A stretch of 64,000 bases of DNA, from positions 4,216,001 through 4,280,000 of the forward strand of contig OZ004588.1 of assembly GCA_963924555.1 (NCBI GenBank), read 5' to 3'. The stretch's first letter is position 1. The number at the start of each line of letters is the position of its first letter. A model generated the notes under the pieces. That model was not told the origin of the DNA, did not search any database, and was given only the letters and a program-made list of their open reading frames with translations. A program made the position numbers and the translations under genes. Below are positions 4,901 to 53,801 of the stretch, piece by piece. This DNA is from Crambe crambe. Its lineage: Eukaryota; Porifera; Demospongiae; Poecilosclerida; Crambeidae.

Positions 4901-7900
4901 CACTTGTGTCATAGATGTTTTTTTTCAGGGGAAAAGAATACAAGTTCATAAACTCAGCCCAAATACAGTTACATGGTTGCCAACTGTCCAGTTTTTTGCA
5001 GCCCCTCAGTTTTATATTTCTCTAAATGTTTTTTATAAGAAAGTGAGATACCTAGAGACTGAGAATATTTAGAAACTTGGGCTATAGTAACCTGAATCCA
5101 GCAAGCAAGGGCTATTAAGGGGCCAAAGGTTTCTAATTACCATAGATTCCATTAATAATTAACTATTATAATGTTATGTTACCAAGCAGTTAACCACAGA
5201 GACTAAGCTTACTAAGTCATGATTACTGACTGCTCTAGCAGGTATAGACACTAAGACTGAAGGATCAAAGGCCACTGCGAACATACCAGGGGTGCTAGAT
5301 TCTTTGGTCAATATGTCTAATTTAGAACAGCCATAGATAACAGCTCTTTGGAGGGCACAAGTCCTCTAACTGACCAATCTGAATTGCTCTATTTAGTTCT
5401 AATCACATACTTAATCCCATGATGAAATTCATTATTTGGTAATTTAGGTGGCTGTGTTTCCTTATTAGCCTAATTATCAGCTATGTTTCACCTATCCCTG
5501 TACTCATGATGAGATTCATTACTTAATTGGTATGGTGGGTGTGGTTTATCATGTTGGGGCCACAACTTTATCGTTTCTTTCACACCAAACCAACTTCAAA
5601 CACGAACATCACAGCTGACTTTTCTGTCACTTATGCCAATCAACGATACAGCACTGATGCAAATAATATCGAGTGAGCTGTTAGTGTATGAGTAACTGGA
5701 CAGGTGTATACCTGATTATCAAACTGAATCTGATCATGAACAGCAATGTTAGTATGGAATCCATTTGCAAACAGTAGCCATATAATTTTATAGCTTGTAT
5801 GTGTGGAGCATGCACATTTCATAGGATTGATATTATATTCAACTGGCTGGCTATCAAGGGGTGCCCATAAAAAATTGAGGAAAAACTTTGCGATGGAAGA
5901 AAAAAATTACAAGCAAATCTTGTAAGTTGTTTGGAGGATTCAATGAGGTAAGTGATTAGTTTTAAACAAAATCTATTATACATTAGGCCACCACAACAAT
6001 AAACACTTGCAAGACCAGAATAAAGATTCCCAGATGACTCACAGCTGTACCAAAAGAGAATGAAGCCACTCAAGAAGTTATGTCATGCATGAATGGGAGA
6101 TAATGAAATCATCAAGGTAGGAGGCATTCCTCTCTTTAATGCAGCCAATACCAGATGTGCATTAATAAATTAGGACTTGGGACCTCAGTTAACTTCATCA
6201 CTCTCTCTATAGAAACTTCTTGGGCTCATAAAAAGAAAAGAAACAGAGCTGATCTCTTGGTTAAATAAATTATAGCTCTTGGCTCCCAAGTTCAAGGAAC
6301 AATTATACCTGCTATGACCAATGGAATCAGTGATCCAAAATTTTTGTGGCTTGGACTATATTTCTTGCTGTGTCAGTATTAGACTATATGCCACTTGTAA
6401 TTTGAGTGTCCCAATAGATCACTGTATACAAACACTAGTATCTCATTTCATTTACTTCCTATAATTACAAAGTTGGGTGGAATTATTACTTGCAGTATTC
6501 CCTCCAAAAATACATTGCCTTCTACGGCATGGAATAGTACAGAAAATATGCCTTCAGAAATACAACGAACTACCAATACTTGTAACCAGTCACCTTGGAG
6601 ATTCATACTACATCTCTATTTTCTGCTTGGGGAAATCTATATAAAACGTGGACCTAAAAATCTCTAATGGTATAGTGAAAAAGTTCCCTTTCGTAAGTCC
6701 TAGCAGGGGAAATGGCAGGCCATGCATGCACTGGAATGACAATTTTACCGCTCATATAGCTCGTATATACATGTAGCTAACTAGGTATGCAGTAAGCTGG
6801 TTACACAGGTAAAGTCTAGCCTGCTGTGGTCTAGCCATGACACACAAGCTATACCTAAAATACGATGAGCTAAGAGAACTGGTAACTTAACCAGACTTGC
6901 AGTCTAACCCTTACAAACTTCCTCTGGTCCAGTTATTCTAGGAAATTAACAACATTCATAAGCAGTTGCCAATTGCTTAACTGGCAAATATTTCCAGGAA
7001 ATAGTCTAAATAGAGCCAGTGCACACCCAGTATATCCTTACCATGAAGTTATACAAAGTACTACCATTATAAAGTAGCATCCTCAATGCATCCTCAATAC
7101 ACAATGCAATTACAGTTATGCTTGCTGTACCTAGCCAAATGATTCATGAAATAATGTTTCAGGGAAAAACAACATTACCTATATAATTTTCTAAGAAGCG
7201 CTATGAAGTTAGCATGTATTCCTGTTTGTAAGTACCCCATGCTCATGTAGTGCATGGCCAGGGCCAGGGCTAAAAGCATTCTTTTTCTTTATCCGGGCAG
7301 CAATCAGTCTATACAAGCCAAATACTTCTGACTTATACCACACTATGCCATAATGAAGGTGGCATCATATTACTCTCTCAGTACAGTCATATATCACAGT
7401 CTTAATTATCTTATCCCAAGGAAGCAGTCAAGTATAGCACACCATGCATAACTAGACTAATGTCACTGTTTCCTTAGCAAAACAGAAGGTGATCTTTGGT
7501 GGGCATCATTAGAATGGCAACAAACCTTGGCTCCAGGAATTTAAAAGGCTCAGCAGGGAACTGTTTATTGATGGTTGCAATCTCCTCAGCACATCTACAG
7601 GTTATAATAATATATGGTAAAAAGGTCAACATGAACAGAAAACACAGTTGCAGTACATTACATCGACTGAGTGCATATAAAGTGCTTACTGCTCTTGTAA
7701 TCCTTTGAATAAGTTGACAAACATTCCACCAATCATCTCTAGTACCTATGAAAAGAAATACCAATTAGAACAGGCTCATGTACAGCCATAAAATGCCATA
7801 GTCACTGCAAAGTTTGTTTTTTTTTTTTCGCCCTAATGGAAAAGATCTTCTGTTGTGTGAGTCCATACATAATTATTAGCGGCACCCTTGCTTAACATGT

Positions 7901-46230: not shown

Positions 46231-46305
46231 TTACAACGGAACATTCAAGTTTACTGTTGCCATCGCATCCTTAGTGAGAGAGCCCATCCAATTGCTGGGT
46301 TTCAC
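46231..46305 (-). pseudogene. Displaced 3' coding end of the kelch gene
   Basis: After removal of the P-like element and one GTTTCAC copy, the kelch frame at 51775 continues here without a break for about two dozen codons (SNWMGSLTKDAM within it) to a TAA at 46231-46233. In the present arrangement this piece is 5.5 kb from the rest of its exon and is cut off by a stop inside the element's end. The exact in-frame rejoining is the evidence. Confidence 0.8.
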
Positions 46306-46338
46306 CATAGATAAAAGAAGGAGAAGGGATTGGCAACG
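46306..46338 (+). repeat. Left terminal inverted repeat of the P-like element
   Basis: 33 bp, identical to the complement of 51735-51767. It begins CATAGATAAAAGAAGG and ends GGATTGGCAACG. Read from the kelch strand, its partner copy supplies the TAG that terminates the interrupted kelch frame. Confidence 0.93.
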
Positions 46339-46867
46339 CGCTATTGAATGATGTCATTTCCGCGAGGGAGGCTGGTTTCTCATGAATAATTAATAAGGAG
46401 GCTGTAGATGCGTACTTTGTATTATGAGAGTGGAGAAGTATGCATTCTGCCACCCACCTTACGCAGGCAGATTGGGCTCTAAATAGAGAATCACCTAAAG
46501 TGGTTGGAAAGTTAGTTGTCGTGTTGTTTTCTTGCTTGAGTATCTCGATAGGGTGAGTTTGTAGTTTTTAGTGAGAGATCTAGCATACAAAGGGACTTTA
46601 GGGTGGATGTATAGTTGCTTCAGTCTCCAAGGTGTGGTTCTGAACATGTGGAATTTTGTTGAAAGAGAGTTTAGCTGAAATGCTTATGTTCCTATGGATG
46701 TCGTACCATGGGTATACTCTGGGGATTTTATAAGTGTGACTAGATGACTAAGACACCATTTAAAGGTTTGAATGGGTAGTTGGATGCCTAGAGAATGGTT
46801 TGGATGTGCATTTAGTCCTGTTAAATATTTCATTTCTTGGTGACATCTGTACTGACATTCTACAGGG

Positions 46868-49800
46868 ATGGGTCGGCGTAAATTTGTTCTTGGGCGTATA
46901 CGGAAGAATTTTGAGAAAAAGCGTCAGGAAGTAAAGGGCAGAAAACCTGGACGTCCCAGGAAGAATAAAAAGGTATACCATAAAGTATTACAACCACTTG
47001 ATTGTGACCCAGTAGAGCTAGTTTTCTATGTAAAAGGATCACCTCCTTATCTTCTTATTAATTTTGTGACATGGTTGGAGATTTCAAATTATTTGATTGG
47101 GTTGGATGGTATGAGAGATAACCTCTCTCCTTTCCTATAGCAGATTAATCCTCCTAGCACTGGAGTGCCCGACATGTCATTTTCTGCTTCAGCATCAGTT
47201 TTGGCACCCAGCTCTGCCTCTGCTACAGCATCTGTTTCTTCTTCAGTCATGGCACCCAATTCTGTTTCTGCTACGGCATCATTTTCTTCTTTTTCAGTAA
47301 TGGCACCCATTTCTGTCTCTGCTACAGCATCAGGTTCTTGTTCAGTTTTGGCACCCACTTCTGTCTCTGCTACAGCATCAGGTTCTTCTTCAGTCGTGGC
47401 ACCCAACTCTGCCTCTGCTGGTTCTTCTTCAGTTGTAGCACCCAACTCTGCCTCTGCTGGTTCTTCTTCGGTTGTGGCACCCAACTCTGCCTCTGCTAGT
47501 TCTTCTTCAGTTGTGGCACCCGACTCTGTCTCTGCTAGTCCTTCAGTTGTGGCACCCAACTCTGCCTCTGCTAGTCCTTCAGTTGTGGCACCCGACTCTG
47601 CCTCTGCTAAAGCATCGTTTTCTTCTTCAGACGTGGCACCCAACTCTGTCTCTGCTGCAACATCATATCCTTCAACTTCTTCCATTTCTGCTACACTTCC
47701 TTTCAATTCCTCCCTACCAATGTCACAATCTTCAGTGACAGAATTGCAGAAAATGTATGATTCGTTGTTACATCTGAATCTTCCATGGAATATTCAATTG
47801 TCAGGGGAGCTTCATATTTGCAAAATTTCTACAGAAGCATGTTCCTCTCCAATCATTACTCATTCTATTGTGGTGCAAAGAGATTTATCTTGGGCAGTAT
47901 TTATTCATGGCCATAAGCTTTCTGACACCTGTACATTTTCATCTATTCCTCATATTGATGTGAGCTCTCTTCCTGGCCTCATGAAAGTTATCAGTGAAAA
48001 ATCTGTATGTCCTGGAAATGCAGATAAGCATTTCTTAGCTATGGCAGAATCCAAGTCTTTCTCATGTGGATCAAAAGCCTATATGGAAAAGTCTCCTGTC
48101 TGCACTATTCGAACTACTTTGTGTACTCTTTTAGTGCTTGAAGGTCATCGGTGTAAAGCCTGCAGTGAATACCGTCCTCAGTTGAGGGCAATGTATAGCC
48201 GTTGGCAAAAGAAAAATACCAGTAAATCTCCAAAGAAGTTTGCTAACAATAGGTATCTAAGTACCCCCCAAAGACAAAAGAAGCTCAAGATACTACAGTC
48301 TAGAGCATACAATGCAGAAAGGGAAGTACACAGGTTAAAAGAAAAGATTAAAATGAGTACTCAAAGAAAAGGAGTCATGTTAGGCAAAGAATTTAGTGAT
48401 GATCTTATGCAGATAATGAAAGAAAGTGATTCTTCCATAAAGAAGCTCTTCCCTGAGGGTAGTTTCAGGCATCTATTTTGGACACAGCAATTGCAAGCTA
48501 CTAAAGCTAAAGATGCAAGACAGATGCGCTGGCATCCATGCATGATCCAATGGTGTCTAAACTTGAAACTTCTATCATCAAGTGCATATCATTCTCTTAG
48601 AACCTCTGGTTTTGTCCGACTACCATCTGAACGTACGCTCCGTGACTATACCCATTTTATTAAGTCCAAGCCAGGATTTTATCCAGATCTCGACAGTTAC
48701 TTGAGGGAGGAAGCACAATTGAAGAAATTACCTGAGTGGAAGAGGTATGCAGTCATAGCCTTGGATGAAATGAAACTCAAGGAAAGTCTCGTTTATGATA
48801 AACATGAAGCTGAAGTGATTGGTTTTGTTGATATAGGAGACATTAATAACAGGTTAACAAAGTTTGAGCGAGAATGCTGTGATGATAAACAAAGCTTACC
48901 CATTGCCACACACATGTTAGTGTTAATGGTAAGGGGGATCTTTACGGGTTTACGATTCCCTTATGCTCACTTCCCTACTTCAAATCTTACTGGTGAACAT
49001 CTTTGCTCCATTGTATGGGAAGCGGTGGAGAGACTTGAACACCTTGGTTTTAAGATCATTGTTATATCAGCAGATGGAGCATCTACTAATAGAAAGTTTT
49101 TTCGACTCCATGCAGAAGAGGCTCAATCCTCTCCATATAACCCACTCTATAAGACTGAAAATCTGTATAGTAGTGAGAAGAGGGAACTATTTTTTATGTC
49201 TGATGTTCCTCATTTACTAAAAACTACCAGAAATAATTGGTCCCATTCGTATGGTCATGGAAGAACAAGGAAACTGTGGGTAAGTAAACTGAAAAAAAAA
49301 TTGATCATGTTGCTTATTGAATGTGTGTTTTAAGGTTAATGGAAAAGATATCAGTTGGCAACATCTGGTGGATCTGTACGAAGCCAAGATGGGAGTGGGC
49401 AAACGGTCCAGTGGTCTATTCCTCCTACAGAAGCTTAGGCTGGAGCATGTTGAGCTTACATCGTATTCAAGGATGAAGGTCAATTTGGCAGCACAAGTAT
49501 GTCTTAGTACTTGGAGGGGGAGGGGGGCATTAATTAAAGACCAATGTACTGCCATAGGCATTAATTAAAGAGCAATATAATAATTATAGGGGAGGGCATT
49601 AATTTATACTCCTGTAATAAATAACTGCCACTGGGACCAGTCAAAGTGTCCTTTCTTTCTAGAGAGGCTAAGGAATTAAGGTGGCAGGGGTGTGTATTGC
49701 TGGAAGGATATTTCATTGCTAGTTTCTTTAGGTGCTGAGCCAGACTGTTGCCAATGCATTAGACCTGTATGGTAAAAGTGAAACAACGGAGACAAAAAAA

Positions 49801-50593
49801 TTTGTTGAAATTTTCAACAAATTCTTCGACTGTCTTAATGTCAGAAGCTTGGAGGAACACCGGAGAAAGAAGAACCCCAATTTGAAGCCTTATAGAAGTG
49901 CTACTGATGAAAGGCTTGAAGTAAGCACTTGTCACACACACACACACACACACACACAGACTGTAAGAGGACAAGGAGAGTGTACAACCATCATTCTGTA
50001 TAAAAATAACCTCTGAAAACTCTAATGACAAACATGGAAAAGGCTAAATATGCTGTAATGTTATATCTTCAATGTAAACTCCTGTAGTGGCTTGAAAAGG
50101 ACTTCCTTGGATATCTCGAGCAGTGGAAGGAGAGCGTGGATAAGCGAGAAGGTTTTACCGATGGGGAAAAGGCAGTAATGTGTTTGAGCACAGAAACTTT
50201 GGAAGGACTGCACATGTCAGGTAGTAACAATAATGGTAACCAAGTGCTTAGTAGTTTATTTTTTCTATTTTTGTATTAGTCAGGACATTTGTTGAAGTGA
50301 CCCGCTTTCTACTTACTCTGCCTGGAGTCACTGGGCAATACATACTGAGCGAGGTTTTCAGCCAAGACCCCCTCGAGAATTATTTTGGGCAAGTCCGTTC
50401 ACGAGGTGGGTGGTGTGACAACCCTACAGCAAAAAGCTGTTTAGAATCTGCCCAGTCATTGCGAGTGCAAGGTTCCATGGCAATGCAGCCAATCAGAGGG
50501 AACTCGAGCCGAAAGAGACGGCTCTTCCAAGACCAGGAAATTATTAGCACTAAACCCCTTCCCAAGAAGCCACGTCACAGAAAGAACAAGTGA
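46868..50593 (+). CDS. P-element-like (THAP9-type) transposase
   Basis: Six exons (46868-46972, 47141-49279, 49335-49496, 49732-49920, 50088-50220, 50280-50593) join in phase into about 1013 residues. The N-terminus is basic with an AT-hook-like KGRKPGRPRKNKK; I see no THAP zinc finger. Residues about 45-200 are a Ser/Ala/Val repeat array. Next come a Cys-containing block (EGHRCKACSEYRPQL), a coiled-coil stretch, and the conserved P-type core: MRWHPCMIQWCLNL, LPSERTLRDYTHFI. The RNase H-like catalytic acids fit D577 (ALDEM), D680 (SADGAS) and E942 (DPLENYFG). SDVPHLLKTTRNNW matches the conserved block in the GTP-binding insertion region. The tail is basic (KKPRHRKNK). A possible 5' untranslated intron runs from a GTGAGT near 46552 to the CTACAG at 46860-46865. 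All parts needed for activity seem present. Confidence 0.93.
47165..47660 (+). repeat. In-frame Ser/Ala-rich coding minisatellite
   Basis: Units of about 30-48 bp built on GTGGCACCCAACTCTGCCTCTGCT recur more than ten times inside transposase exon 2 and encode VAPNSASA-like repeats. They keep the frame. The antisense open frame 47089-47706 is a shadow of this repeat. Confidence 0.9.
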
Positions 50594-50675
50594 TTGTGAT
50601 TGTTGTTTACTGAAATAATGATGAATGAATGTGTTTTGTTTGATGCAGTAAGTTCTTGACAAGCGATCTAATTAT

Positions 50676-51623
50676 TTATTTAACTTGTGATGACTTTGAT
50701 TTCTTAGCCTGTGCCTTTGATGCCTTTACCAATTTCTTAGCCTTGGCTGATTTCTTTTTAATTTCTTTTCTGAGACTCTTCTTCCCTTTGGTCACTTTTT
50801 TCTCTGAACGCTTGTACTCTTCCAACCACATGGATGTTAGTGAAAAACCACGGATCTTAACCCAATGTTCAACGACAGTCCTCAATAATTCAGCAGAGTG
50901 ACTCTCTTCCTGTATGTCTACTGACTGTAGCAACCACTGGAATTGTACATCATCATCTTCTATAATCTGGTTGAGAAGTATATCTTTAGAACTAGTAGAA
51001 GACTGGCTCTGGAGATGACTTGACAGGCATAATTGAGTTTTCAACTCAACAGTTCGAAAAAATAGAAAAGTTGACTCACTTATGCAGAACAGACCTCCTC
51101 TATTTACACGACTGATCCATTCTTTCGTATATGAATAGAAACTAGACTCTTCACCACAATGAGCCATTTGTGATAGACAATTAACAAATTGAGCTGCCTT
51201 TTGAGTATTTTCTTTCTCAAATATTCTCATCACCTTCAAAGCCACATATCCACCTGCATATCTTACTGCATTCTCTTCTTCAAAACACATTGTTGGGTGC
51301 TTATGGTTCAGAAGTGTCTTGGCTGAAGCTCCTTCGTAAAGTACCTGGTTTAGCAGTAGCCTGTTAATAGTTTGAGAAATCAATGGCTTCACAGTGGGTA
51401 TTCCAAGCCTTGTGCACAAGGCTTCCCACAAGAATGGAAGAGCTTTCATGCTCAACTGATGAAAATTTCTTACAGATGATCCTGAACGAAGTAAGTCTAC
51501 AATATCCACACAAAACTGTCCAAATATTTGTTCTTCAGATAATTTTAGTAGTCTTGTGAGATCTTCACTGGCTCCATAAGTATTTATAGCTGTGTGTACA
51601 GCAGACAAGACTGCATCTGACAT
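50676..51623 (-). CDS. Second gene of the P-like element, unknown function
   Basis: One intact 315-codon exon lies wholly inside the transposon, convergent with the transposase. The start at 51623 (MSDAVLSAV) lies about 110 bp from the right terminal repeat. The middle contains ENAVRYAGGYVALKVM and YTKEWISRVNRGGLFCISES. The first block recalls the Y-A/G-GYV-K motif that follows the catalytic region in several transposases. The last 40 residues are extremely Lys-rich (KKVTKGKKSLRKEIKKKSAK), a likely nuclear or nucleic-acid-binding tail. No zinc finger or enzyme motif was recognised. I have the impression that similar uncharacterised proteins occur in sponges and cnidarians, but could not check. 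It may be an accessory factor, regulator or repressor. Confidence 0.85.
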   Translation of the reverse strand: MSDAVLSAVHTAINTYGASEDLTRLLKLSEEQIFGQFCVDIVDLLRSGSSVRNFHQLSMKALPFLWEALCTRLGIPTVKPLISQTINRLLLNQVLYEGASAKTLLNHKHPTMCFEEENAVRYAGGYVALKVMRIFEKENTQKAAQFVNCLSQMAHCGEESSFYSYTKEWISRVNRGGLFCISESTFLFFRTVELKTQLCLSSHLQSQSSTSSKDILLNQIIEDDDVQFQWLLQSVDIQEESHSAELLRTVVEHWVKIRGFSLTSMWLEEYKRSEKKVTKGKKSLRKEIKKKSAKAKKLVKASKAQAKKSKSSQVK

Positions 51624-51734
51624 TCCGCGTGAAAGAAAGGGTTAAAATAACGAGGTCAAAGTGCATTGTGACATCATATAGAGAATTGATCAGAGTTAAT
51701 TGCGAAACGCGCCTATTTCAATTGGTGGGATAGT

Positions 51735-51767
51735 CGTTGCCAATCCCTTCTCCTTCTTTTATCTATG
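51735..51767 (-). repeat. Right terminal inverted repeat of the P-like element
   Basis: 33 bp, exact complement of 46306-46338, followed directly by the GTTTCAC target copy (51768-51774). Confidence 0.93.
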
Positions 51768-53801
51768 GTTTCACATACCCTCCAATGATTAAAATTTGAC
51801 CTCCTTGTAAAACTGCAATAGAACAAGAACTCTTTGCTGAAGGCATTTCTCCAAGAACAGACCATTTCTCTGCTGCAGGATCGAAGCTATGTACTGTGGT
51901 GGTAATTTTCCCAGATTGATTCTGCCCACTTGCAATGATTAACTTTCCATTAATTACTGCTGCACCAGATCGGAAATAAGGAGAGTCAGTAATAACTTTC
52001 CAAACTTTCCTTGTTTGATCACTTGTTATCAGCTCAGAAAGAGAACAGCTGTATACTGACTGCATAGCTCCATCAGCTTTCAATCTGCATGTCAAATAAC
52101 TTTGCTCTAAAAAAGAAATTTAACCTAGCTATAGCTAGCTAGCAAGCTCTAAAAACAGTAGCTAGCTAGCTACACTTCAAAAAGTAGGGTTGACACTCTT
52201 TTGATTATGAATAGCACCATCACAATGGACTGTAGTTTTAGAGCTAGTATACTATACTTGCTCCAGCACCTATACTATATGGAAAACCGACGATGCCACC
52301 AGATTGAGCCAGAAGAAGGTACATATAGTAGCACCCTTCATTAGACTCCCTCGCTTCACTTGCCAATAATATTTACCATAATAATTGTCAAGAGTACTGC
52401 ACATACATCTCTTACTCATTAAATTGACCTTTATTATTGGGTATGTATGGCTATGGGGCCCAATCTCTACACCTTTGATGTACCATTGGTATGTGGCAGT
52501 GCAGTACTAATGGTTAATGGTCTATTCTGTGTATCATGTCCCAGAATCTGTGGAATAGTGTTCAGTGAAGAGTGCCTCTAGCTAAAAATTACCCATTACT
52601 GTAACTAGTCATGTTTTTAAGGATATTATTGTCTTTTACTTTCACACAAATTTGTGTCCATTCCAGCCTAGCAGTCACTATCACATGACTTTATATGGCA
52701 TGAAAGCAGTGACACTCTTAGTAGTGCTACATATAAGCACAAATAAGCATGACAACATAAAGAATCCACACATAACTCATCTTAGATTCAAATTGAGCAA
52801 TAGTATGATTAGCCAGTTGTGTGTGAAATCAACACAAGAGTGTATACAACTAGGCAAAGTCACACAAGGAAATATATATCATATTTTAATAGGAATCTGT
52901 ATAACAACCCCAATCTAGGGTTCGTATGATTGGAATCATAGCCTGAGAAGTATATAGCTAGGTTTGTGTCACACGATAACCAACAAAAAAACAACAACAA
53001 CAACTCATGCAGTATTGTCTGTAACCCTAATTCACTTACCCTCCTAACAAATATATTTGTCCTGTCAAATTGCAAGCTGCAATGGACATAAAGGTTACTG
53101 GTTGTGGAAGTGGACACACTACACTCCATTCCATTGACGAAATATCAAGAACCTCAACCACACTTACATAGACATCATCATCAGATATTCCCCCAGCAAC
53201 AACAACATGGGAACTTGTAGAAACTGCACTTGAAGCACTCCGCTTAGTTAACATTGGAGGAAACTTTACAGACCATTTTTTGGATCCATCTTCATAACTG
53301 GTTAGGACGTCACAAACACAAGCAGTAACTATACTATGTCCCCCGATTATTGTCACCAATCCTTTAATCAGAATCATGCTGAATGTATAATAAGCTGTGA
53401 TCGGAAGGGAAGTCCAAATGTCGGTTGCAATATCATATTTCATGACTGTCCTTGTGAATTCCATCTTTCCTGTATTTCCACCACCAACATACACATTGTT
53501 ACCATGAGTGACAATATGAGGACGAACCATACCACAGGGCATTGGTGAGCAGCCTCTCCAAAGAAGATGGGCTCGATAAATATCCTGTAAAAAAATTCCA
53601 GAGTTGATTAGAGCATTAGTTTTTTGGACCACATCTGTGACTTATGGTATTATATAATACAAACTATGCAATGCAAGAACATGCTGATATGTGACTCCTA
53701 AACATCTGCAACTGAATTTTATAGCACTTACAGGTAAAGTCTTTTGCAAATGATCTATCTTTTCTTGGAGAAGCTGCACTTCAAGACCTTCTTTATTCAT
53801 A
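51768..53801 (-). CDS. Coiled-coil/kelch-repeat protein, interrupted by the transposon
   Basis: Exons seen: 53732-53801 (MNKEGLEVQLLQEKI, a short coiled coil, ATG at 53800), 53040-53584, and 51768-52104 (or 52106). Kelch blades are marked by NVYVGGG, LVTIIGGH, VVVAGGI, IYLLGG, LIIASGQ and ILIIGGY, each followed by a Trp-containing strand (WTSLP, WSVKFP, WSVVCPL, WKVITD, WSVLGE). That makes about six repeats, a full beta-propeller. The join 53040 to 52104 does not fit in phase, so a micro-exon is probably missed. No BTB/BACK domain is in view; upstream exons may exist. In this haplotype the frame runs over the target duplication and stops at a TAG in the transposon end, losing about 21 residues after the last GGY. 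Confidence 0.85.

What the first reader, a model, noticed from the sequence alone, without database searches (positions are those of the whole stretch)
46306..51767. Complete, probably active P-like transposon in a non-insect animal
The sequence shows perfect 33-bp inverted ends beginning with CA, a 7-bp flanking duplication, and a full-length transposase whose six exons stay in frame, with D577/D680/E942 in the expected P-type motif blocks. P elements are best known from Drosophila, and vertebrate THAP9 is a single-copy relative. An element with intact ends and frames is uncommon and would be a useful active-element candidate.
Basis: partly seen in the sequence, partly recalled or inferred. 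Interest (0 to 1): 0.85.

Follow-up and report, generated by a model that had tools for sequence, protein, structure and literature searches.

The report
Two-gene P-type jumping element
An animal genome carries a P-type DNA transposon, with many diverse relatives, in which the tail domain of the transposase appears to be a separate, convergent gene on the opposite strand, so the cut-and-paste machine may need two proteins.

Summary
In detail: 46306-51767 is a 5462-bp P-superfamily transposon with perfect 33-bp ends, a 7-bp target duplication and a splice-compatible transposase gene with the DDE residues and all eight GTP-contact residues. A second copy, identical over 5462 bp, has a different 7-bp duplication, so transposition was recent. 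It is not rare here: at least 165 transposase matches, and 935 matches to the terminal motif against 0 in a control.

A 321-aa open frame (50676-51641, minus) runs convergently; 44 of the 60 best transposase matches have a relative of it in that place. Its codons show purifying selection. Two conserved blocks match, in order, the C-terminal domain (CTD) of Drosophila P transposase (score 52.4; none of 20,000 shuffles reached it; best in 235,008 decoy residues 23.9), while transposases read end about 70 aa after the catalytic Glu, without a CTD. No THAP domain is present.

Best reading: a split P transposase whose CTD is supplied in trans. The homology is shown moderately (two blocks; a third failed; no usable fold); the mechanism is inferred. 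Eight searches of an open-access paper library listed no description.

The parts
46299..46305 (.). target-site duplication, left copy (GTTTCAC)
46306..46338 (+). left terminal inverted repeat, 33 bp, CATAGATA...GGGATTGGCAACG
   Evidence: motif shared genome-wide
46868..46972 (+). transposase exon 1; start ATG and a basic, AT-hook-like GRKPGRPRK stretch (name recalled, no Pfam match)
47141..49279 (+). transposase exon 2: Ser/Ala-rich repeats, CxxC stretch, RNase H N-terminal domain, start of the GTP-binding insertion
48764..48766 (+). catalytic D577 codon
   Evidence: sequence, numbering
49073..49075 (+). catalytic D680 codon
   Evidence: sequence; aligned to D303 of Drosophila P transposase
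49335..49496 (+). transposase exon 3 (GTP-binding insertion domain)
49732..49920 (+). transposase exon 4
50088..50223 (+). transposase exon 5 (alternative donor after 50235)
50280..50593 (+). transposase exon 6; catalytic E943 at 50375-50377; the protein ends 71 aa later without a CTD
50676..51623 (-). second gene (ORF2), convergent, 315 aa from the first ATG at 51623; the open frame extends to 51641 (321 aa, stop at 50676-50678). Basic tail; CTD-like protein
51234..51272 (-). ORF2 block 1 (NAVRYAGGYVALK), matches AMEYIAGYV of the Drosophila P CTD
51042..51122 (-). ORF2 block 2 (WISRVNRGGLFCIS...E), matches YVDEVSHGGLIKPS...E of the Drosophila P CTD
51735..51767 (-). right terminal inverted repeat, 33 bp
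51768..51774 (.). target-site duplication, right copy (GTTTCAC)

Best explanation
A cut-and-paste transposon of the P superfamily with a split transposase. Gene 1 (plus) makes the catalytic subunit: an N-terminal region without THAP, a helix-turn-helix region (weak match), and an RNase H fold interrupted by the GTP-binding domain. It stops 71 residues after the catalytic Glu. Gene 2 (minus, convergent, its start about 110 bp inside the right inverted repeat) makes a 315-aa protein carrying the C-terminal domain that in Drosophila P is the tail of the same chain. I infer that the two proteins assemble on the ends: gene 1 cuts and joins with GTP as cofactor, and gene 2 supplies in trans the CTD that holds the displaced transposon strand and presents a basic tail to target DNA, leaving 7-bp duplications. 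Shown: anatomy, copy and end census, recent mobility, conservation and co-occurrence of gene 2, two-block similarity to the CTD, absence of a CTD from gene 1. Inferred: splicing, assembly, and the need for gene 2.
For: Pfam domains. 6p5a_A match E 4.4e-14; all 8 GTP-contact residues named in PMC7776569 (K385, K400, V401, S409, F443, D444, N447, D528; passage) are identical in that alignment, read by eye. Second copy identical over 5462 bp with a different duplication. 23 of 27 elements have a 7-bp duplication, 1 has 8 bp, 3 have none. ORF2 is convergent in 44 of the 60 best transposase rows, 997-2212 bp downstream; no row has it downstream on the same strand only. ORF2 pN<pS in 10 of 10 family pairs. 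The CTD is a separate chain, 6p5a_B. The ORF2 blocks score 52.4 on it: 0 of 20,000 shuffles reach this; 0 positions in 235,008 decoy residues, best 23.9. hhalign score 31.0 against a best of 27.6 in 200 shuffles. Of nine transposases looked at, eight end 67-76 aa after the Glu (the ninth, L036, closes after 33). The ORF2 profile finds nothing in the spliced transposase. The CTD is helical, joined by a disordered linker, and lies between domains of another subunit (passage), so supply in trans is plausible.
Against: Homology to the CTD rests on two blocks. A third block (RGF...YK) scores no better than chance (12,445 of 20,000 shuffles as good). phmmer with the CTD alone does not separate ORF2s from shuffles. 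hmmsearch gives 10.0 bits, exceeded by 1 of 1000 shuffles. hhalign probability is only 27-31%. I chose the blocks knowing the CTD motif, though they hold invariant columns of the ORF2 alignment. Both AlphaFold models of ORF2 are poor (pLDDT 42.5 and 45.8) and the fold searches gave no signal. 16 of the 60 transposase rows have no convergent ORF2 detected; of the 15 with none nearby I read one, which is cut off before the last exons. Synonymous differences are near saturation (pS 0.71-0.86). ORF2 is about 180 aa longer than the CTD. No RNA, protein or activity data.
Confidence: 0.6

Rival explanations
1. ORF2 is CTD-derived but is a regulator (repressor, target selector or assembly factor) that is not needed for cutting and joining; gene 1 works alone.
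For: Drosophila P itself makes a truncated protein that represses (PMC7776569, passage). ORF2 carries about 180 aa beyond the CTD.
Against: ORF2 is kept in 44 of 60 transposase rows and between families with about 25% ORF2 identity; the transposases read lack a CTD of their own (8 of 9 end 67-76 aa after the Glu, one earlier), which a mere regulator would not explain.
Confidence: 0.22
2. ORF2 is an accessory protein unrelated to the CTD, as RAG2-like is to RAG1-like in convergent RAG-like transposons; the two-block likeness is chance or convergence.
For: Third block at chance level, phmmer not significant, no Pfam or NCBIfam match. Convergent two-gene animal transposons exist (PMC7204232, abstract start).
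Against: 0 of 20,000 shuffles and 0 positions in 235,008 decoy residues reach the score; the blocks are in order with matching internal spacing; the CTD is missing from gene 1.
Confidence: 0.12
3. An ordinary one-gene P element; ORF2 is a non-functional antisense frame or captured host gene.
For: No transcript evidence; no family in Pfam.
Against: At least 125 matches in the genome, same place and strand, pN<pS in 10 of 10 pairs.
Confidence: 0.03

Closest known systems
Drosophila P element (transposase 6p5a/6pe2)
   Same: RNase H with GTP-binding insertion, DDE residues, eight GTP contacts; ends beginning CA (recalled); CTD blocks present in the element
   Different: No THAP domain; CTD in a second, convergent gene; 7-bp instead of 8-bp duplications
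Zebrafish Pdre2 / THAP9
   Same: P-type transposase; ends begin CATA (13-bp CATACCTGTCAAC, PMC10983969 passage)
   Different: THAP and CTD in one protein, 13-bp ends, 8-bp duplication (PMC10983969 passages and section 5)
Galileo (Drosophila, P superfamily)
   Same: 7-bp duplications (PMC3573991 passages)
   Different: Very long inverted repeats, THAP-bearing transposase (search-listing titles and abstracts); 'second ORF' does not occur in the paper's main text
RAG-like transposons (RAG1L/RAG2L)
   Same: Element with two convergent genes (PMC7204232, abstract start)
   Different: Different transposase; the second gene is not a piece of the transposase (recalled)

Membership tests
P superfamily of DNA transposons | RNase H transposase with GTP-binding insertion domain (PF21787, PF21788, PF21789) | tested here: met
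   86.5, 67.2 and 35.9 bits, all over the curated cut-offs
P superfamily of DNA transposons | DDE catalytic residues and GTP-contact residues of Drosophila P | tested here: met
   D680/E943 aligned to D303/E531; D577 to D230 in a weak stretch; 8 of 8 GTP contacts identical, read by eye
P superfamily of DNA transposons | Terminal inverted repeats with 7- or 8-bp target duplications | tested here: met
   33-bp ends; 7 bp in 23, 8 bp in 1, none in 3 of 27 elements
Canonical P element / THAP9 type | N-terminal THAP domain | tested here: not met
   No THAP in the transposase; of 30 THAP and 150 PF21787 matches listed, the closest pair is 9.1 kb apart
Canonical P element / THAP9 type | C-terminal domain in the same polypeptide | tested here: not met
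   The window's transposase ends 71 aa after the Glu; 8 of 9 read end 67-76 aa after it, L036 after 33; no ORF2/CTD profile match in the spliced transposase; CTD-like blocks lie in ORF2
Canonical P element / THAP9 type | 8-bp target duplication | tested here: not met
   7 bp in the window, in its twin and in 23 of 27 in all
P transposase CTD family (as a protein family for ORF2) | Two conserved blocks AxxYxAGYV and V..GGLxxxS...E in order | tested here: met
P transposase CTD family (as a protein family for ORF2) | Likeness over the rest of the CTD | tested here: inconclusive
   Third block at chance; both tails basic
P transposase CTD family (as a protein family for ORF2) | Same fold as 6p5a chain B | tested here: inconclusive
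   AlphaFold models too poor
Active transposon | Transcription and transposition today | not testable with these tools
   only identical copies with different duplications

The most novel reading that the evidence does not exclude
A deep branch of P-superfamily transposons works with a two-subunit transposase: the strand-holding, target-facing CTD is a separate protein from a convergent gene. In this genome the arrangement is seen in two divergent groups with unrelated ends (the CATAGATA clade, and the L106/L035 group, where relatives of the convergent protein carry a DRGGL block), so the split may be ancient and the fused insect and vertebrate form only one of two designs.
Probability: 0.5. 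Interest if true: 0.78.

Novelty: new variant of a known kind. Interest (0 to 1): 0.62.

Why it matters
P transposase is a model for GTP-using transposition, yet its CTD joins the catalytic core by a disordered linker and stands as a separate chain in the solved structure. A natural element in which the two parts are separate genes would give a direct way to ask what the CTD does, and whether the fused form is ancestral. It also shows that P-type elements without THAP, with a second gene, can be abundant in an animal genome, so surveys that look for THAP9-like single genes could miss or misannotate them.

Tried and rejected

Relatives in public prokaryote and virus collections: none for ORF2 (12 candidate stretches in genome contigs; 28 in viral contigs). 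Solved structures by sequence: nothing useful for ORF2 alone (one hit, E 0.96) and none for its alignment.

Third CTD block: at chance. The lead that the 383-aa convergent frame of L035 is an ORF2 was not supported on its own (8.9; 1168 of 5000 shuffles as good). Relatives of it carry the DRGGL block: L103 scores 36.4 against a best shuffle of 30.0 in 5000; L104 scores 28.7 and its best shuffle of 5000 ties to rounding. Profile alignment of that group with ORF2 is colinear but weak (probability 3.9%), and with the CTD it shows nothing (0.1%).

Empty site: joining the flanks restores a kelch-repeat frame for 21 further codons, but the other matches to that gene end are kelch relatives at 26-38% identity, so there is no independent empty site.

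First decoy run was spoiled by degenerate ORF2 copies among the decoys (7 positions at or above 52.4; the six top rows shown come from loci fetched with an ORF2 query); repeated on the window and 14 loci chosen by hand as free of ORF2. A first pair count of 41 of 60 kept only one hit per transposase row; one search gave 44 of 60 but used only part of the ORF2 rows; one search repeats it with all 125 rows (43 of 60) and with 92 of the 135 rows added, small fragments left out (44 of 60).

Papers: eight searches listed no description of a two-gene or split P transposase. The library lacks most subscription papers, and Repbase could not be searched.
Full report
OBSERVATION. The window is G000:C11:4216001-4280000 of a 143,139,886-bp genome in 119 contigs. 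The inverted arms 46304-46338 and 51735-51769 are 35 nt and fully complementary. The outer 2 bp arise because the duplication begins with GT and ends with AC; comparison with another copy fixes the element at 46306-51767, 5462 bp, with 33-bp ends and a GTTTCAC duplication. Five GT..AG introns give one open frame of 1014 aa; a second donor in the fifth intron gives 1018 aa.

COPIES AND AGE. The copy at C16:6173760-6179221 has 0 differences in 5462 bp and another 7-bp duplication, GTAGCAC. So both moved recently, from each other or from a common source. A third left end on C16 (6190265) has the same flank and lies in a 7.9-kb duplication 99.94% identical; it is not a separate insertion. L028 (C6:3932300-3938999) holds an older, interrupted right part, 95-96% identical. 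Joining the window's flanks restores the frame of a kelch-repeat gene on the minus strand for another 21 codons before its stop; the element's own end supplies an in-frame stop there (sequence).

A LARGE CLADE. The transposase core has at least 165 matches in the genome and PF21787 at least 150. The motif CATAGATA N(4-24) GGGATTGGNAACG occurs 457 times forward and 478 in reverse, against 0 and 0 for the pattern read backwards. I compared the two flanks of 27 elements: the window, C16, five from loci L025, L026, L027, L029 and L030, and 20 end pairs picked by hand from the part that was listed (C1-C3). 23 have 7-bp, 1 has 8-bp and 3 have no duplication; the 7-bp sites favour T at position 2 (17 of 23) and A at position 6 (17 of 23). 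PMC7776569 and PMC10983969 give 8 bp for Drosophila P and zebrafish Pdre2 (passages); Galileo copies are flanked by 7 bp (PMC3573991 passages).

THE TRANSPOSASE. Pfam: RNase H N (86.5 bits), GTP-binding insertion (67.2), RNase H C (35.9), all above cut-off; the P helix-turn-helix model is below cut-off (14.7 against 23); no THAP. Against Drosophila P transposase 6p5a_A: E 4.4e-14; all eight GTP-contact residues named in PMC7776569 (passage) are identical in the printed alignment (read by eye). THAP occurs elsewhere in the genome, 30 matches; the nearest to any of the 150 PF21787 matches is 9.1 kb away.

THE MISSED GENE. On the minus strand, 50676-51641 is an open frame of 321 aa, 315 from its first ATG, with no Pfam or NCBIfam match. 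It has at least 125 matches in the genome. I took the first 60 of the transposase rows (of at least 165; not the rest) and asked for ORF2 rows within 5 kb. With all 125 rows, 43 of 60 have one downstream on the opposite strand; with 92 of the 135 rows added, 44 of 60, 997-2212 bp away, median 1218. One row has an in-frame, same-strand fusion upstream; 15 have none. Of those 15 I read one, C5:8388845: its downstream 2.3 kb shows neither the last transposase exons nor ORF2, so it looks like a truncated copy. Across five families, pN is below pS in 10 of 10 pairs for ORF2 (pN 0.37-0.55, pS 0.71-0.86, near saturation) as for the transposase; identities of the two proteins correlate (r 0.73 over 10 non-independent pairs). 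ORF2 is therefore a conserved protein gene of the element.

WHAT ORF2 IS. I looked at the end of nine transposases. Eight (window, L025, L026, L027, L029, L030, L035, L106) end 67-76 aa after the catalytic Glu; in the ninth, L036, the frame closes after 33. The ORF2 profile finds nothing in the spliced transposase of the window. In Drosophila P a helical CTD follows, joined by a disordered linker, lying between RNase H and the GTP domain of another subunit, touching transposon and target DNA, with a basic end (PMC7776569 passage). In the Protein Data Bank it is its own chain, 6p5a_B, 135 aa. Invariant columns of the six-sequence ORF2 alignment (E122, N124, G131, W175, RGGL 181-184, E199 among others) lie in two blocks that match that chain: ENAVRYAGGYV / EDAMEYIAGYV, then WISRVNRGGLFCISESTFLFFRTVE / YVDEVSHGGLIKPSEKFQEKLKELE, with the same GGL-to-S and GGL-to-E spacing. 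A matrix made from seven ORF2s gives the CTD 52.4; the best of 20,000 shuffles is 34.3, the best of 52 other open frames 11.4; the best in 235,008 six-frame residues chosen as free of ORF2 is 23.9. hhalign: score 31.0, E 5e-4, against a best of 27.6 in 200 shuffles. Weaker or negative: hmmsearch 10.0 bits, 1 of 1000 shuffles higher; phmmer from the CTD alone not significant; third block at chance; models useless. The ORF2 tail is basic (20 K/R, 2 D/E in the last 44 residues), as is the CTD tail (8 and 1 in 25).

A SECOND GROUP. PF21787 also finds a divergent group (L035-L037). L035's transposase ends 72 aa after its Glu and faces a convergent 383-aa frame. A relative, L106, is a 5.05-kb element with 46-bp ends unrelated to CATAGATA and no obvious target duplication, a minus-strand transposase (44% to L036's core over 84 aa) and a convergent plus-strand protein with YLDRGGLTF. 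The block score of this protein group is beyond 5000 shuffles for L103, tied with the best shuffle for L104, and not significant for L035's own protein. So the two-gene layout is seen in both groups; the homology of the second protein there is probable, not shown.

MECHANISM. Best-supported: gene 1 binds, cuts and joins with GTP; gene 2 supplies the CTD in trans (0.6). The trans step is inference; that the CTD in the solved complex works between subunits makes it plausible. Rivals: CTD-derived regulator (0.22), unrelated accessory protein (0.12), non-functional frame (0.03).

FILING. It is a P-superfamily element by transposase, ends and duplication. It is not a canonical P element or THAP9: THAP and an attached CTD were tested and not met. 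Eight paper searches listed nothing that describes a two-gene P element; Repbase and most subscription journals were out of reach, so this is not proof of novelty. The host species is not known to me; a sponge is my guess from memory of such sequence, untested.

Noticed in passing
G000:C16:6171000-6196000 (L006-L008): A 7.9-kb segment is repeated about 11 kb away at 99.94% identity and carries the first 2141 bp of the element; either a recent duplication or an assembly artefact.
   Followed up: partly
L031 3424-4623 (G000:C5:4464423-4465622): One 400-aa open frame fuses the N-terminal third of an ORF2 in frame to the transposase RNase H region (32% and 47% identity); chimera, rearranged copy or possible host gene.
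   Followed up: partly
listing, e.g. G000:C1:2807098-2808203: Many listed end pairs lie about 1.0-1.1 kb or 2.2 kb apart with nearly identical ends: probably short non-autonomous families riding on the clade.
   Followed up: no
L029 6105-7780: A 1676-bp, probably internally deleted element with its own 7-bp duplication (ATTCGAG) and a leftover last transposase exon sits beside a two-gene element.
   Followed up: partly
L106 1110-6162: A two-gene element with 46-bp ends unrelated to the CATAGATA type; its transposase is only distantly related to the window's.
   Followed up: partly
L030 246-375 / 6535-6664 and 600-704 / 6196-6300: This element lies inside longer perfect inverted repeats (130 and 105 bp), suggesting insertion into another palindromic element.
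   Followed up: no
window 51763-53641 (-): Host kelch-repeat gene whose 3' end is interrupted by the element; the genome holds many kelch relatives (42 further matches besides the two at this locus).
   Followed up: partly
window 47190-47640: Repeated Ser/Ala-rich units in the transposase N-terminal region; the reverse strand of this stretch is also part of a 234-aa open frame.
   Followed up: no
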